From: Erysipelotrichaceae bacterium
GTDB taxonomy: Bacteria; Bacillota_I; Bacilli_A; Erysipelotrichales; Erysipelotrichaceae
Reading direction: 5' to 3'
DNA: 27,097 nucleotides
Assembly (NCBI GenBank): GCA_017511325.1
Contig: JAFWKS010000449.1
Location: 1 to 27,097 of the forward strand
This document shows positions 13,996 to 22,893 of this stretch, piece after piece. Position numbers and translations under genes: made by a program. Position 1 is the first letter of the stretch, and every line of letters starts with the position of its first letter. Under the pieces are notes generated by a model that saw only the letters and a list, made by a program, of their open reading frames with translations, was not told the origin of the DNA and did not search any database.

Positions 13996-14585
13996 TAAGA
14001 ATATTATACGTCAGTACAATTGATAATATGCGGAATCGGAAAAGTGTGCACAACAGGTAAGAATCATCAGTTCTTTTAAGGAAAGGCAACCATGGATATG
14101 GCAATATAAACTGATCGAATTAATTGACTCTATATCTTCTTTATGCGCAATGCGATGTTTGGCATCGTACCATTTATGAACAAGCAAAGAAATCAACTTT
14201 CGTGACAGAGCCTTATGTTCAGGCCCATCATAGGAAGAAAAACGCAAAGAGTGTCTCACAAAGGGGAACTATCTGAACTGTAAGGCATATACTTGGCGGT
14301 AATCCAGATCTTTTAGGAACGGACCAGCAAAACCGTCTAGTCCAGGTACTGATTCATTCCTGAAAGATCACTAAGAATTTTTATTTTCTATCTGGATCAA
14401 TTATCAGATCAAAGATATCTTATGAGTCAGAAATCGGCCACGTAGTACAAATTTGGCTCCTATTTTCATTAATGTTAATTAGAACGAATGATTTATGTTT
14501 AATTAACGAATTGAGCTGTTTTTGTTACTTAAAAGTGATATTATTTACTTAAATTACATCAGTGATAATTAGGAGATTTTACAAT
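13996..14585. other. 590-bp stretch without an intact gene; possible decayed minus-strand ORF
   Basis: The first 13 bp hold the tcdA -10 box. On the minus strand 14259-14011 can encode 82 residues (start GTG; SSYDGPEHKALSRKLISLL near its beginning), and the same frame continues upstream across a TAG with sensible-looking sequence (GLDGFAGPFLKDLDYRQV, about 14354-14300). This looks like a remnant of a longer gene, but I recognise no family and see no ribosome site. From about 14400 the DNA becomes strongly AT-rich and leads into the fic promoter region, with two related blocks ATGTTAATTAGAACGAAT and ATGTTTAATTAACGAAT (14472-14489, 14495-14511). Confidence 0.35.
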
Positions 14586-15726
14586 ATGAATAATAGATCT
14601 GGATATTTTGTAAATCAGCCTGGAGGGTTTAAGTCTTTTGTTCCAAATAAACTTCCTCCGACCAATCCGTCAATAAAATATGATCAGGAAATGATAAACG
14701 CTCTTTCAAAAGCAGAAAGGATGCTAGGAAGACTTGATGGCGTAACACAAGTTTTGCCTAACCCAGAATTATTTGTAGCTATGTACGTAAAAAAAGAGGC
14801 GGTTCTCAGTTCGCAGATAGAAGGTACACAAGCTTCACTTACTGATCTATTTGAGGAAAGTGAAGACGAAGGGAAAATAAAACACGTAAGCGAGATAGTA
14901 AATTATATAAATGCGATGAATTATGGCATAGAAAGACTAAACACATTACCGTTATCCTTAAGACTCATTAGGGAAATACATCAGTGTTTACTTCGTGATG
15001 TTAGAGGTGGAGAACGCAATCCGGGAGAATTCAGAAGATCACAGAATTGGATCGGTCCTAAAGGTTCAACATTATCTAATGCGGTATTTGTTCCCCCCTG
15101 CTGTTCCAGATATGATACAAGGTCTTAATGATTTGGAAAGTTTTATAAATGAAAAAGACGAAATATCACCTTTGATAAAAATTGCACTGATACACGCTCA
15201 ATTCGAAAGCATTCATCCCTTCCTTGATGGAAACGGAAGAATGGGAAGGTTGCTAATAACATTTTGGCTATATAATGAACAAATCCTTTCAAAACCATTA
15301 TTATATTTGAGTTATTATTTCAAATTGTTTAGAGAAGATTATTATAATTCACTAATGAATGTGAGGTTAAATGGAGATTGGGAAACGTGGATCAAATTCT
15401 TTCTAAAAGGTGTTTCGTACGTTTCTCGAGAAGCAATCGATACAGCTAAAGAAATACTCGAGCTAAAAGAAGAATGTGAAAAACAAATAGGCGAATATAG
15501 TAATACGTATTATTCAAATTGTTTAAATTATTTGTTTGAATATCCGGTCGTTTCTAAACCTCAATTAGAAGACCAACTTAAAATTGCTGCTCCTACAGTT
15601 GGAAGAATCGTAGACAAAATGTGTAGCTTAGGAATCCTTAAAGATATCACTCCACAAAAACAAAGATATAAAAGATATGCATTTGATAAATATCTATCAA
15701 TTTTAAACAGAGGAACCGAAATATAG
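14586..15726 (+). pseudogene. Fic-domain AMP-transferase, split by a +1 frameshift in a C6 tract
   Basis: Two overlapping frames make one protein. Frame one runs from ATG 14586 (AGGAG 10 nt upstream; the in-frame GTG at 14562 lies before that ribosome site and is rejected) to 15128. Frame two carries on to 15726. Removing one C from the run at 15093-15098 gives NAVFVPPAVPDMIQGLND, as expected for the family, and one ORF of about 380 codons. The class II inhibitory helix SSQIEG (75-80) and the catalytic HPFLDGNGRMGR (bases 15214-15249) are intact, with a C-terminal winged-helix-like end. Fic enzymes of this type transfer AMP to a protein hydroxyl. As read, the product lacks the catalytic motif. 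The alternatives are a sequencing error, decay or phase variation. The region is AT-richer than its neighbours, suggesting acquisition. Confidence 0.8.
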
Positions 15727-19638: not shown

Positions 19639-20703
19639 GTGATAAAAGCAGTACTAAATAACGAAATCCTAAACTATATTATTTCCATCGAAAGAAGCAA
19701 CGAACATTTTTCAAATGTCAGGATTCCTGTTGAAGTTTTTAAACGCCTTAGAAAAAACTCCAGAAAGAAGAGTTCATATGCTTCAAACAAGATCGAAGGA
19801 AATCCACTAAATGAGCAACAGGCAAATTCTGCAATTGAGGATAGAAGCAGACACCTTCTGAAGCCGGAGCAGGAAATCAGAAATTACTATCTGGCTATGG
19901 AATACCTTGACAGTAAACTTAAAAACAAAGAGAAACTTTCTCTTGATCTGATTCTCGATGTCCAAAAAAGAATAGTTTACAGCTCCAGTAAAGAGAAGAT
20001 CGGAATTAGGAGCCCAATGCCTCCGGGATTTCTTTTTGCCGTATACGATGAAAGCAGTAAGGAACCTGAATATATCCCTCCTGCCGCAGAAGATATTGAA
20101 CCGCTTCTTGATGAGCTGATCGGCTATGTCAATGAAAGTGAAGACCATCCACTGTTAAAGGCAGCTATCGTTCATTATCAGCTGGTTACGATCCATCCCT
20201 TTGAAGATGGAAACGGCAGAACAGCCAGGCTGATAAGTGAATATGTTCTGGATTATTATGGATACTATTTTGGGGGAATCGGCTCTCTGGAAGAGTATTT
20301 CCTTTACAATCTACAAGAGTACTATGATTCTTTGCAGATGGGATTGCCTGCACTGTATTATGATGGCAGAAACAATCCTCCTCATCCGGAAATTTGGATA
20401 GAGTTCTTTCTGAGAATGATGAAGCTTTATTCTGAGAAAAATAATGAAATGGTAAATGAAGGTATCAGCAGATCGATAGAAACAAGCCTGTCTCACCTTA
20501 ACAAAAAGGAAAAGGCATTCTATTATTATCTTAGAGACAACAATATCGAAAAGTTTACGCCGATAGAATTAAGCGAGACTTTCTCCGTAAGCAATAGAAC
20601 GATCATAAACTGGTGTTCAGCTTTATGCAAAAACGGATTGCTTAAAGCTGAATTGGTAAATAAAAGAATCAGAAGCTATATATTCAGTAAAGATGAACGT
20701 TGA
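19639..20703 (+). CDS. Fic-domain AMP-transferase, class II (autoinhibited), intact
   Basis: 354 residues. An N-terminal Fic_N-type region carries the inhibitory helix SNKIEG (49-54; Ser/Thr-x-x-x-Glu-Gly), whose Glu53 is expected to block the ATP gamma-phosphate. The Fic core has HPFEDGNGRTAR from His186, with the catalytic His, the metal-binding Asp/Glu and the ATP-binding Gly-Asn-Gly-Arg all present. The preceding IPPAAEDIEPLLDELIGYVN is the flap region that positions target side chains. About residues 295-350 look like a winged helix (FTPIELSETFSVSNRTIINWCSALCKNGLL), so it may bind DNA as well. It likely transfers AMP to a protein Ser/Thr/Tyr. The GTG start is supported by the -10 box and the length; there is no Shine-Dalgarno. 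Its 3' end overlaps loaP by 11 bp. Confidence 0.88.
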   Translation: MIKAVLNNEILNYIISIERSNEHFSNVRIPVEVFKRLRKNSRKKSSYASNKIEGNPLNEQQANSAIEDRSRHLLKPEQEIRNYYLAMEYLDSKLKNKEKLSLDLILDVQKRIVYSSSKEKIGIRSPMPPGFLFAVYDESSKEPEYIPPAAEDIEPLLDELIGYVNESEDHPLLKAAIVHYQLVTIHPFEDGNGRTARLISEYVLDYYGYYFGGIGSLEEYFLYNLQEYYDSLQMGLPALYYDGRNNPPHPEIWIEFFLRMMKLYSEKNNEMVNEGISRSIETSLSHLNKKEKAFYYYLRDNNIEKFTPIELSETFSVSNRTIINWCSALCKNGLLKAELVNKRIRSYIFSKDER

Positions 20704-21274
20704 ACAGAAACAGGAATTAAGAAAAGATTTTCTGGAGAACGGATTTGATTCCTATGTCTTTTTTACATTGTCCAATAAGGAAGTGGATCTGGCAGAAGAA
20801 CTCAACGGGAAGTATGATGATCTTTATGCTTTGGTTTTAAAAAGGATGATGCATCGCTCAGATCATGGAAAGAAATGGGACGAAGAATCCGTGCTGATCA
20901 AGGGATATGTTTTTATTTATGTACCGAAAGGTTACGATATCCGTTATATCCGTTCTGACAACAATCCTTACCGTATACTTAAATGGCAGCTTGAACTAGG
21001 TAAGTTATTTGGTGACGATTACCGCTACAGTGAGTGGGTGCTGGAACAGGATGGCCTGATAGGTGTATCCAAGGCCATCAAAGTCAATGAAATGGTCAAG
21101 ATCGTCGATGGACCATTGGCCGATTTTGAAGGCTATATCGTCAAGTATTCAAAACGTAACCGTAATTGTCTGGTGGAAGTCAATTTCATGAACCAGACGA
21201 TCAGGACCTGGCTGCCCTTTGAATGGACTGATCAGAACTATATCATGGATGATAAACAGGACTCTACGGAGTGA
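20693..21274 (+). CDS. loaP: LoaP-like NusG paralogue (processive antiterminator)
   Basis: 193 residues. The N-terminal NGN domain spans about 18-115: DSYVFFTLSNKE, then LVLKRMMHRSDHGKKWDEESVLIKGYVFIYVP, where the 'kGYVF' strand and the preceding basic segment are typical of NusG paralogues of the LoaP/UpxY kind. A C-terminal KOW domain follows: VNEMVKIVDGPLADFEGYIVKYSKRNRNCLVEVNFMNQTIRTWLPFEW (about 134-180). It is not the housekeeping NusG, because the NGN start is divergent and secE/rplK are not adjacent. Such proteins ride on RNA polymerase and suppress termination in long operons for polysaccharide or secondary metabolites. The start overlaps the fic stop, without a strong own ribosome site. 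The last base of the Glu codon and the TGA stop belong to the inserted TnpB element. Confidence 0.8.
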   Translation: MNVEQKQELRKDFLENGFDSYVFFTLSNKEVDLAEELNGKYDDLYALVLKRMMHRSDHGKKWDEESVLIKGYVFIYVPKGYDIRYIRSDNNPYRILKWQLELGKLFGDDYRYSEWVLEQDGLIGVSKAIKVNEMVKIVDGPLADFEGYIVKYSKRNRNCLVEVNFMNQTIRTWLPFEWTDQNYIMDDKQDSTE

Positions 21275-21419
21275 ACCTCCCATAAGCTAAAGACTTATGG
21301 GCTTCTTAAGAAGTCTGATATTTAAGCTTTGTTCACCTGAATTATGCAATACAGTATGTTTCTGAATACTTGGTCTATGTATGTGTGTGTATTCCTGTTC
21401 CTGTATGCAGTATTTGTAT
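21271..21419 (-). ncRNA. Putative omega RNA (reRNA) scaffold at the TnpB element right end
   Basis: 148 noncoding bases between the tnpB stop and the right end, read in the same direction as tnpB. They include the 12-bp palindrome CTTCTTAAGAAG (21313-21302), the end hairpin (21301-21279) and the terminal AGGTTCAC. I recall the ISDra2 reRNA scaffold ending in a hairpin followed by AGGTTCAA, a close match. The guide would be the flanking DNA, bases 21270 down to about 21251, that is the end of loaP. The 5' limit is probably inside tnpB and cannot be set from sequence. Confidence 0.6.
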
Positions 21420-22667
21420 TCAGGATATCCTTATTCTTAACGGGCTGTCCACATGCCCTCTAGCGTATAGGACACTTAGATCCACAACGTTACTTTTCTT
21501 TAGGATATTTAATGCACCGTTGACATCCGCATTGAGATACATTCCTTTTGAGGTCTGATAGAGACCTCTTTTTATTCTTGCACCTGAGAACACATAATTC
21601 TTTGTATGATCATCGTTATATGATGGCATATCATCTTTGTCAAAGAAGGATGCTTTGCTTGTATAGGACTCTTCTTGCTTGATAAGTCTTATTCCGTAGT
21701 ATTGAGATAAGTAAGATAACTTGTCCTTTAATCTTCCATAAGGTATGTTCACAAAGTTCTGGTTGTTTCTATTACCGATATCGCTTTCTGTTTGTAACGT
21801 AGGATCATAGCCGATGACGATATTGCCGATATCGTTGTCTAAGCAGTAGCTGATGATATACCTGGCGCACTTGCTTATGTAATCGCTGATACGGTTGTTT
21901 CTGTTTCTTTCCAAAGATGACTGCTGTTTCGTCTTGAAGGTTATCTTCTGCTTATCCTTTATTGACTGTAACCTTGAATTATTCTTGTTGTACCACTGAT
22001 TGATATTTTTAAGTCTTTTACCATCCAATATGAATGATTTTCCTTCATTCGTAACACATGTTGCCAGATTGTTTATTCCCGCATCGATGGATAACGCCTT
22101 GTTAAAGTCTAACTCTTTTTTGATATTCCTGCCTGCTTCATAGGTGTACTGTAATGCAAAGAACCTTCCATTGGATTTAGGAATAATACGAATCTCCTTT
22201 ACTTTCTTATCAAGAAGTATTGGCGGCAAAACAATCTCAATCTTCTTATGTGTTTTTCTGAAGGAATTGCTGTAAGGAATCAGAAGCTTATTGTCCTGAA
22301 GTCTTACAAATCCAATGAGAAGTGTATAATAGCCATCCTTCTTAAGATATTGGGGCAATCGTATGTCTTTGAATGAATACTTTCCTGTTCTTGCCAGCTT
22401 AAGTAAACCAAAAAACGATTTAAACGATCCATCCGCTTCCTTTAAGATCTGCTGAGCCATATTGGAGTTAAGCATCTTATAGTTATCACTGTTTCTTAAT
22501 AAGGCATAGTTTTCATAATAGTTCAGATACCTTGATTCCCTAAAGAAACACTGTCTGACATTATAGAGAGCTTCATTATACAGATCCTTGGCATATCTGC
22601 ATAATTCCAGCAGGATGTCATATTCATATTTTGAAAGCTTTGCCTGCTGTCTTACCGTAAGATACAT
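21420..22667 (-). CDS. tnpB: TnpB RNA-guided nuclease (IS605 OrfB family), subfamily without zinc ribbon Cys
   Basis: 415 residues. The N-terminal wedge/REC part begins MYLTVRQQAKLSKYEYDILLELCRYAKDLYNEALYNVRQ. The RuvC residues are present: Asp195 in LSIDAGINNLATC, Glu332/333 in IKQEESYTSK, and Asp381 in LNADVNGALNIL, so the nuclease looks active and it is not a dead TldR-type repressor. The CxxC pairs normally found between the last two motifs are absent: YTSKASFFDKDDMPSY...IKRGLYQTSKGMYLNAD has no Cys. The ATG at 22667 has an AAAGGAGGTG 11 nt upstream (long) and a second AAAGG 2 nt upstream. TnpB cuts DNA matching its guide next to the TAM, favouring retention of the element. Confidence 0.88.
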   Translation of the reverse strand: MYLTVRQQAKLSKYEYDILLELCRYAKDLYNEALYNVRQCFFRESRYLNYYENYALLRNSDNYKMLNSNMAQQILKEADGSFKSFFGLLKLARTGKYSFKDIRLPQYLKKDGYYTLLIGFVRLQDNKLLIPYSNSFRKTHKKIEIVLPPILLDKKVKEIRIIPKSNGRFFALQYTYEAGRNIKKELDFNKALSIDAGINNLATCVTNEGKSFILDGKRLKNINQWYNKNNSRLQSIKDKQKITFKTKQQSSLERNRNNRISDYISKCARYIISYCLDNDIGNIVIGYDPTLQTESDIGNRNNQNFVNIPYGRLKDKLSYLSQYYGIRLIKQEESYTSKASFFDKDDMPSYNDDHTKNYVFSGARIKRGLYQTSKGMYLNADVNGALNILKKSNVVDLSVLYARGHVDSPLRIRIS

Positions 22668-22874
22668 ATCCTTTATTTCACCTCCTTTCTGTATTGAATA
22701 TAATTCAAGTTCAATTCAATTATAACATAATACTTGAATTAATTTAATGTTAATAGAGTACTGAAACGAATCTATGCTGATCCAAAAGACAATTCGAAAA
22801 TATATTGAAAACCAAGGCTGATGGCATTCATCCCATTGACTGAAGATCAATGGGTTTTCTGCCTGGGATTATAT

Positions 22875-22893
22875 AAAATCTGTAGATTTTTTT
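22875..22893 (+). terminator. Weak AU-rich terminator, likely the original fic-loaP terminator
   Basis: Stem AAAATC/GATTTT with loop TGTA followed by TTT. In the reconstructed empty site it would start one base after the native loaP stop TAA, whose bases overlap the TTTAT target on the other strand. Confidence 0.4.

What the first reader, a model, noticed from the sequence alone, without database searches (positions are those of the whole stretch)
21271..22872. TnpB element inserted exactly in the loaP stop codon, swapping the stop without changing the protein
With the ends set at 21271 and 22872, the current loaP 3' end reads ...ACG GAG TGA, where the final G and TGA come from the element's terminal AGGTTCAC (minus strand). 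Joining the flanks (…ACGGA + ATAAAATC…) gives ACG GAA TAA, so the protein would end in the same Thr-Glu-stop before insertion. The TTTAT target on the minus strand overlaps the native TAA. The insertion also separates loaP from its likely terminator at 22875-22893.
Basis: partly seen in the sequence, partly recalled or inferred. Interest (0 to 1): 0.8.

Follow-up and report, generated by a model that had tools for sequence, protein, structure and literature searches.

The report
Jumping gene replacing a stop codon
A small mobile element carrying an RNA-guided nuclease gene sits exactly in the stop codon of a bacterial regulator gene and supplies a replacement stop, so the protein is unchanged, and related elements in related bacteria appear to have done the same at the ends of other genes.

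Summary
A 1602-bp TnpB element (21271-22872, minus strand) lies exactly in the stop codon of a loaP-like gene. Its right end (GGTTCAC|) is fixed by comparison with other insertion sites whose flanks are unrelated; its left end follows TTTAT. Two very close LoaP proteins lacking the stop read on as STE-QNL and STE-KNL, which fits the DNA right of the element, so the empty site GAA TAA AAT CTG is supported at protein level. I could not fetch an empty allele as DNA.

The new result is recurrence. Read antisense, the target is A-TAA-A and the element end is G-TGA-A, in one frame, so antisense insertion at NNA TAA A gives NNG TGA. In the family, 14 of 48 right ends sit this way, in 14 different genes, against 10-14% of tolerated TTTAT sites; frames 0 and 1 gave 0 and 1, plus one frame-0 case outside the counting rule. 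A distant genome adds 3 of 4 intact copies. Phage-borne relatives give 0 of 16, so it is not universal. Non-stop copies often follow terminator-like hairpins (8 of 14).

The claimed loaP terminator is not supported. Survival at harmless gene ends likeliest explains the excess; a stop-codon strategy is possible but unproven.

The parts
20693..21274 (+). loaP-like NusG-family gene (193 aa); the last base of codon 193 and the TGA stop come from the element
   Evidence: best NCBIfam match NF033641 LoaP, E 1e-21 but 77.7 bits, below the curated cut-off of 125
21271..22872 (-). TnpB element (IS200/IS605 type, no tnpA inside), 1602 bp
21420..22667 (-). tnpB, 415 aa; putative RuvC residues Asp195, Glu332/333 (alternative place), Asp381; no Cys after the EESYTS motif
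   Evidence: (NF040570 guided_TnpB 175.1 bits, cut-off 100); residue roles by motif, not tested
21271..21274 (+). element right end read antisense, G-TGA: completes codon GAG and gives the stop
21279..21301 (-). right-end hairpin CCCATAAG...CTTATGGG
21271..21420 (-). right-end (reRNA/omega RNA) region; GTGAAC (21331-21336) pairs with the terminal GTTCAC in the predicted fold
   Evidence: the RNA itself is inferred
21251..21270 (-). flank expected to be the guide (16-20 nt), antisense to the last codons of loaP
   Evidence: inferred from position and from ISDra2 (PMC8612924, passages)
22873..22877 (-). target TTTAT; read on + it is A-TAA-A and holds the native loaP stop
22832..22854 (-). left-end hairpin; on the + strand a terminator-like site

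Best explanation
This is a tnpB-only member of the IS200/IS605 family, probably moved in trans by a Y1 TnpA transposase, which inserts 3' of TTTAT. On the strand opposite a gene, TTTAT reads A-TAA-A, and the element's conserved terminus TTCAC reads G-TGA-A, with both stops in one frame. So antisense insertion at a gene ending NNA TAA A replaces TAA by TGA and the last codon NNA by NNG, nearly always synonymous. loaP is one case. Such insertions are common because they do little harm: copies inside genes are lost, and copies at stop codons and behind terminators survive. Shown: ends, target, frame rule, recurrence, excess over background. Inferred: TnpA in trans, survivorship as the cause, and a TnpB guide antisense to the host gene's last codons.
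For: Ends and target. Read-through LoaP alleles. Recurrence: at 100 codons or more the stop frame has 14 of 47 right ends, frame 0 none, frame 1 one; 14 of 48 after the rest of the pattern places were scored. Background TTTAT sites in 400 kb: 3.7% stop frame, 11% frame 0, 20% frame 1 of 945; stop/(stop+intergenic) 10.5-14.0%. Binomial p 3e-4 to 5e-3 for 14 of 48, 9e-4 to 1.1e-2 without the window. Pfam families in 11 of the 13 host genes other than loaP, all of different kinds. Second genome G282: 3 of 4 intact copies, all four left ends at TTTAT. Final codons of the 17: 14 NNG synonymous with NNA, one ATG (L153), two tandem stops now TAG TGA (L166, L225). Sibling elements have a divergent tnpA beside tnpB in G117 and G115. 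Of 18 copies with a visible left end, 8 follow a terminator-like hairpin and 4 others sit at stops.
Against: No empty allele was read as DNA. Among phage-borne relatives, 0 of 16 copies with a recognised right end (15 distinct; 3 of the 19 examined had none; the other 23 viral loci were not scored) are at stops of ORFs of 100 codons or more. One hairpin-bearing right end that fails my sequence rule (L115) has a 469-codon ORF entering in frame 0, so it may cut a gene. The original NNA is inferred from the target in 13 of the 17 stop cases; both ends are seen in the window, L222, L225 and L226. Genes were called by ORF length, not by a gene finder. The terminator test was set up after seeing the flanks.
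Confidence: 0.85

Rival explanations
1. Stop-codon strategy: the ends and target have been kept matched (A-TAA-A / G-TGA-A) because they give harmless antisense landing at gene ends, with the TnpB guide lying in coding sequence so that empty alleles can be re-invaded.
For: Excess over a null that already leaves out gene-internal sites; same frame match in a second genome at 64-65% TnpB identity; GTTCAC right ends in 16 of 19 phage copies examined.
Against: 0 of 16 phage copies at stops. In loaP the guide lies in a tail that differs in the more distant LoaPs (P0023 onward). Part of intergenic DNA is also intolerant, which would raise the null. That target and right end resemble each other is expected from how TnpA recognises both (recalled).
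Confidence: 0.15
2. The copy has been put to use by the host: its antisense guide RNA, or its hairpins, regulate loaP or end its transcript.
For: The expected reRNA would read into the loaP 3' end on the antisense strand; a terminator-like hairpin lies at 22832-22854.
Against: The terminator scan finds 2 sites against 1.2 expected in shuffles. In the six other loaP loci whose 3' end lies in the contig, no such element stands in the 260 bases after the match that were printed.
Confidence: 0.05
3. Chance single event with no general meaning.
For: About 10-14% of tolerated TTTAT sites are stop sites, so one case alone is unremarkable; phage copies show none.
Against: 14 of 48 in the family and 3 of 4 in G282, in different genes.
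Confidence: 0.1

Closest known systems
IS200/IS605 family, tnpB-only (IS1341-type, name recalled) elements
   Same: Subterminal hairpins, insertion 3' of a pentanucleotide, no target duplication, TnpB, siblings with divergent tnpA
   Different: Recurrent in-frame replacement of host stop codons; not described in the listings and passages I saw
ISDra2 TnpB (PMC8612924, passages seen)
   Same: TnpB beside a right end that gives the guide RNA there; target sequence equals the nuclease motif
   Different: Target TTGAT there, TTTAT here; here the catalytic Glu appears to be in the alternative place and the zinc-finger Cys are missing
Group A IStrons (PMC4227781, passages seen)
   Same: T-rich targets including TTTAT; insertions made harmless; an in-frame stop at the insertion point is noted there
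   Different: Harmlessness there comes from intron splicing; here from replacing the stop codon; no Rfam family matched the window at gathering score
Fanzor-like TnpB with alternative Glu (PMC10711439, passages seen)
   Same: Glu close to where the zinc finger would start rather than about 50 residues upstream
   Different: DAG instead of the DPG motif, and no Cys zinc finger

Membership tests
IS200/IS605 family | Subterminal imperfect palindromes at both ends | tested here: met
   LE 22832-22854 and RE 21279-21301 hairpins
IS200/IS605 family | Insertion 3' of a fixed short target, no target duplication | tested here: met
   TTTAT at 15 of 16 left ends found without requiring it; right flanks do not begin with TTTAT
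IS200/IS605 family | Y1 HUH transposase | tested here: inconclusive
   Absent from this copy; PF01797 adjacent and divergent to tnpB in G117 and G115, and found in 9 of 12 genomes searched
RNA-guided TnpB nuclease | TnpB family profile | tested here: met
   NF040570 175.1 bits, cut-off 100; PF01385 and PF07282 over cut-off
RNA-guided TnpB nuclease | Canonical RuvC-II glutamate | tested here: inconclusive
   Judged by eye from a recalled motif, without a solved structure to align to (no PDB match): the window reads IVIGYD where Glu is expected; some of the 19 relatives have GYNE, a Glu three residues after the Gly. EESYTS, the likely alternative Glu, is in all 20 proteins looked at, but the script kept only frames holding it
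RNA-guided TnpB nuclease | Guide-directed DNA cleavage | not testable with these tools
   needs biochemistry
LoaP antiterminator | NCBIfam LoaP cut-off | tested here: not met
   77.7 bits against 125; still the best of three families listed, the next having 37.8 bits; so called loaP-like

The most novel reading that the evidence does not exclude
TnpB elements with TTTAT/TTCAC ends are stop-codon specialists: matched ends make antisense landing in TAA stops seamless, and the guide then records the host gene's last codons, giving a homing system that uses protein-gene ends much as some phages and integrative elements use tRNA gene ends (comparison recalled). LoaP alleles that lost the stop (P0016, P0018) would then be escape alleles without the target.
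Probability: 0.15. Interest if true: 0.75.

Novelty: new variant of a known kind. Interest (0 to 1): 0.5.

Why it matters
It shows a simple way for a mobile element to enter a coding gene without harm: its target and its own end both spell a stop codon in the same frame. This helps explain where such elements persist, warns annotators that a TGA stop may belong to an insertion, and makes a testable prediction about which TnpB guides point at gene ends.

Tried and rejected
Own-genome copies: no genome is held for the window. Empty DNA allele: the closest MAG contig stops inside loaP (L007) and its genome gave no match to the right flank (the tool notes that without a positive control an empty answer shows nothing). 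Other loaP loci (L001-L006) have different tails and downstream DNA. loaP in viral contigs: none confirmed. Right-end pattern in viral contigs: none; the phage copies came from the TnpB search, and only 19 of its 42 loci, L011-L029, were scored. Rfam: no match at gathering score. PDB by sequence: no match. Terminator claim not supported. Class search for more copies: 2 of 395 genomes at E 1e-110, both already known. Two TnpB fragments in G282 (L227, L228) were looked at, and no right end was recognised in them. Conserved-guide homing at loaP is weakened because the tail differs in more distant LoaPs.

Papers: search listings; passages only of PMC7290912, PMC4227781, PMC10711439, PMC11870625 and PMC8612924. 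I saw no description there of TnpB elements replacing stop codons; papers outside the library were not searched, so this is no proof of novelty.

Full report
WHAT IS THERE. On the minus strand the window holds TTTAT | ATAATCCCAGGC ... tnpB ... GGGAGGTTCAC | TCCGTAGAG, an element of 1602 bp (21271-22872) with a hairpin near each end. The tnpB product (415 aa) passes the NCBIfam cut-off for RNA-guided TnpB. The gene running into its right end is a loaP-like NusG paralogue (best family LoaP, below the curated cut-off).

BOUNDARIES. The window has no held genome, so I went through LoaP relatives: L007 is a 97%-identical LoaP (residues 1-146) in an uncultured Erysipelotrichaceae MAG, and its genome, G001, served as the centre for family, order and class searches. 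The 15-base right-end pattern, with up to one mismatch, occurs at 69 places in 35 of 272 family genomes. I fetched 58 of them with long flanks; with the window that makes 59. Nine were dropped for lacking the right-end loop (five not elements by eye, four halves of small palindromes), leaving 50; three more palindrome halves were dropped, leaving 47. The 11 places not fetched at first were scored later from shorter loci: one passes the rule (L133, not at a stop), giving 48; of the ten that fail it, L115 carries a right-end-like hairpin with a 469-codon ORF entering in frame 0, and L119 is a small palindrome. After the shared end the 50 flanks show no similarity to each other. Left ends found without requiring a target follow TTTAT in 15 of 16 cases (11 of 12; 4 of 4).

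EMPTY SITE. Of 22 LoaPs 96-100% identical to this one, 19 end at the same Glu; P0016 and P0018 run on as QNL and KNL, and P0011 ends ENIK. QNL and KNL fit a changed TAA followed by AAT CTG TAG, the DNA right of 22872.

THE FRAME RULE. Antisense to the element, the empty target reads A-TAA-A and the inserted element reads G-TGA-A. A gene ending NNA TAA A therefore ends NNG TGA after antisense insertion. For each right end I measured the open frames running into it. At 100 codons or more, of 47: stop frame 14, frame 0 none, frame 1 one, outward seven, none 25. At 60 codons the figures are 14, 2, 2, 9 and 20; at 80 they are 14, 2, 1, 7 and 23; at 150 they are 13, 0, 1, 5 and 28. The 14 genes are of different kinds: the loaP-like gene, an SBD_N/NBD_C protein, a pyridine nucleotide-disulphide oxidoreductase, a glutathione peroxidase, a phosphorylase, a carboxylesterase, a GNAT protein, an ABC/FtsX protein, a GH25 protein, a PF00144 serine hydrolase, a DUF885 protein, a G3P acyltransferase, and two without Pfam match.

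NULL. In 20 stretches of 20 kb from nine genomes that carry the right-end pattern the same measurement on 945 TTTAT sites gives 3.7% stop frame, 11% frame 0 and 20% frame 1. Counting only tolerated places, stop/(stop+intergenic) is 10.5 to 14.0% depending on the ORF threshold. Binomial p for 14 of 48 is 3e-4 to 5e-3, for 14 of 49 (L115 added) 4e-4 to 6e-3, and without the window for 13 of 47 9e-4 to 1.1e-2. The ORF caller marks 91-94% of the DNA as coding, which probably overstates the null; intolerance of part of the intergenic DNA would mean that it is understated.

INDEPENDENT SETS. G282, found in the order search and not in the family search, holds six TnpB matches, four of them intact at 64-65% identity; three of the four enter stops of ORFs of 120-229 codons, the fourth (L223) a 40-codon ORF that I did not count, and all four left ends follow TTTAT. 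Against this, of the 19 phage-borne loci scored 16 have a recognised GTTCAC end and 0 of these 16 (two are the same site) enter a stop of an ORF of 100 codons or more. At the 10.5-14% null, none in 15 has a probability of 0.10-0.19, so this is no clear contradiction, but it gives no support to a general rule.

OTHER GENE ENDS. Among 18 copies with a visible left end, 8 have a terminator-like hairpin (home-made score, 12 or more) running into the target, against 38 of 202 intergenic background sites; four others are stop-site copies. Twelve of 18 therefore sit at a gene's 3' end against a null of 28% (p 7e-4); at stricter scores it is 11, 11 and 8 of 18 (p 1e-3, 3e-4, 7e-3). This test was designed after seeing the flanks.

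MECHANISM. Sibling elements carry a Y1 tnpA divergent from tnpB (G117:C2 69633-69998 next to 68310-69551; G115:C48 57486-57827 next to 57920-59161); this copy lacks it, so movement in trans is inferred. By analogy with ISDra2 (PMC8612924, passages) the right end should give a guide RNA whose last 16-20 nt are antisense to the final codons of loaP. The predicted fold closes with GTGAAC/GTTCAC in 12 aligned copies, but only one of 19 pairs shows a two-sided change, so covariation gives little support. The enzyme seems to carry its RuvC-II Glu in the alternative place described for Fanzor-like proteins (PMC10711439, passages); this is by eye and activity is untested.

WHY SO MANY AT STOPS. Simplest: copies inside genes are lost, and stop and terminator sites are harmless havens which this target happens to fit. 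Retention may add to it, since deleting the right end would remove the stop; some copies are 5'-truncated with the right end kept (L142, L143). A true stop-codon strategy is the bold alternative; the variable loaP tail and the phage copies speak against it.

VERDICT. The finding is right about the site and the swap, not supported about the terminator, and understates the matter: it is one case of a repeated, rule-like outcome in this group of elements.

Noticed in passing
L148:3000-3040, L168, L170, L186, L119: About 39-bp palindromes made of the right-end hairpin with GTTCAC-like sequence at both sides, apparently stand-alone mini-elements.
   Followed up: partly
L157 (49 bp), L155 (322 bp), L133: Deletion derivatives: L157 and L155 have both ends and the TTTAT target; L133 has left-end-like sequence fused to the right-end hairpin.
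   Followed up: partly
L142, L143, L145, L147, L151: 5'-truncated copies keeping the right end with or without a tnpB fragment; L142 and L143 supply a host stop codon.
   Followed up: partly
LoaP proteins P0011, P0016, P0018: Three of 22 close LoaP alleles have lost the stop at this place, and so possibly the TTTAT target, and have a 3-aa tail.
   Followed up: no
L115: A right-end-like hairpin with a 469-codon ORF entering in frame 0, possibly an insertion that cuts a gene.
   Followed up: no
tnpB 21420-22667: Likely alternative catalytic Glu (EESYTS) and no Cys after it; of the 19 relatives inspected 15 also have no Cys there and four have one or two.
   Followed up: partly
window 14562-15128 and 14995-15726: Two overlapping ORFs that look like parts of one Fic-type protein (by eye, not tested), besides the Fic-family gene at 19639-20703.
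   Followed up: no
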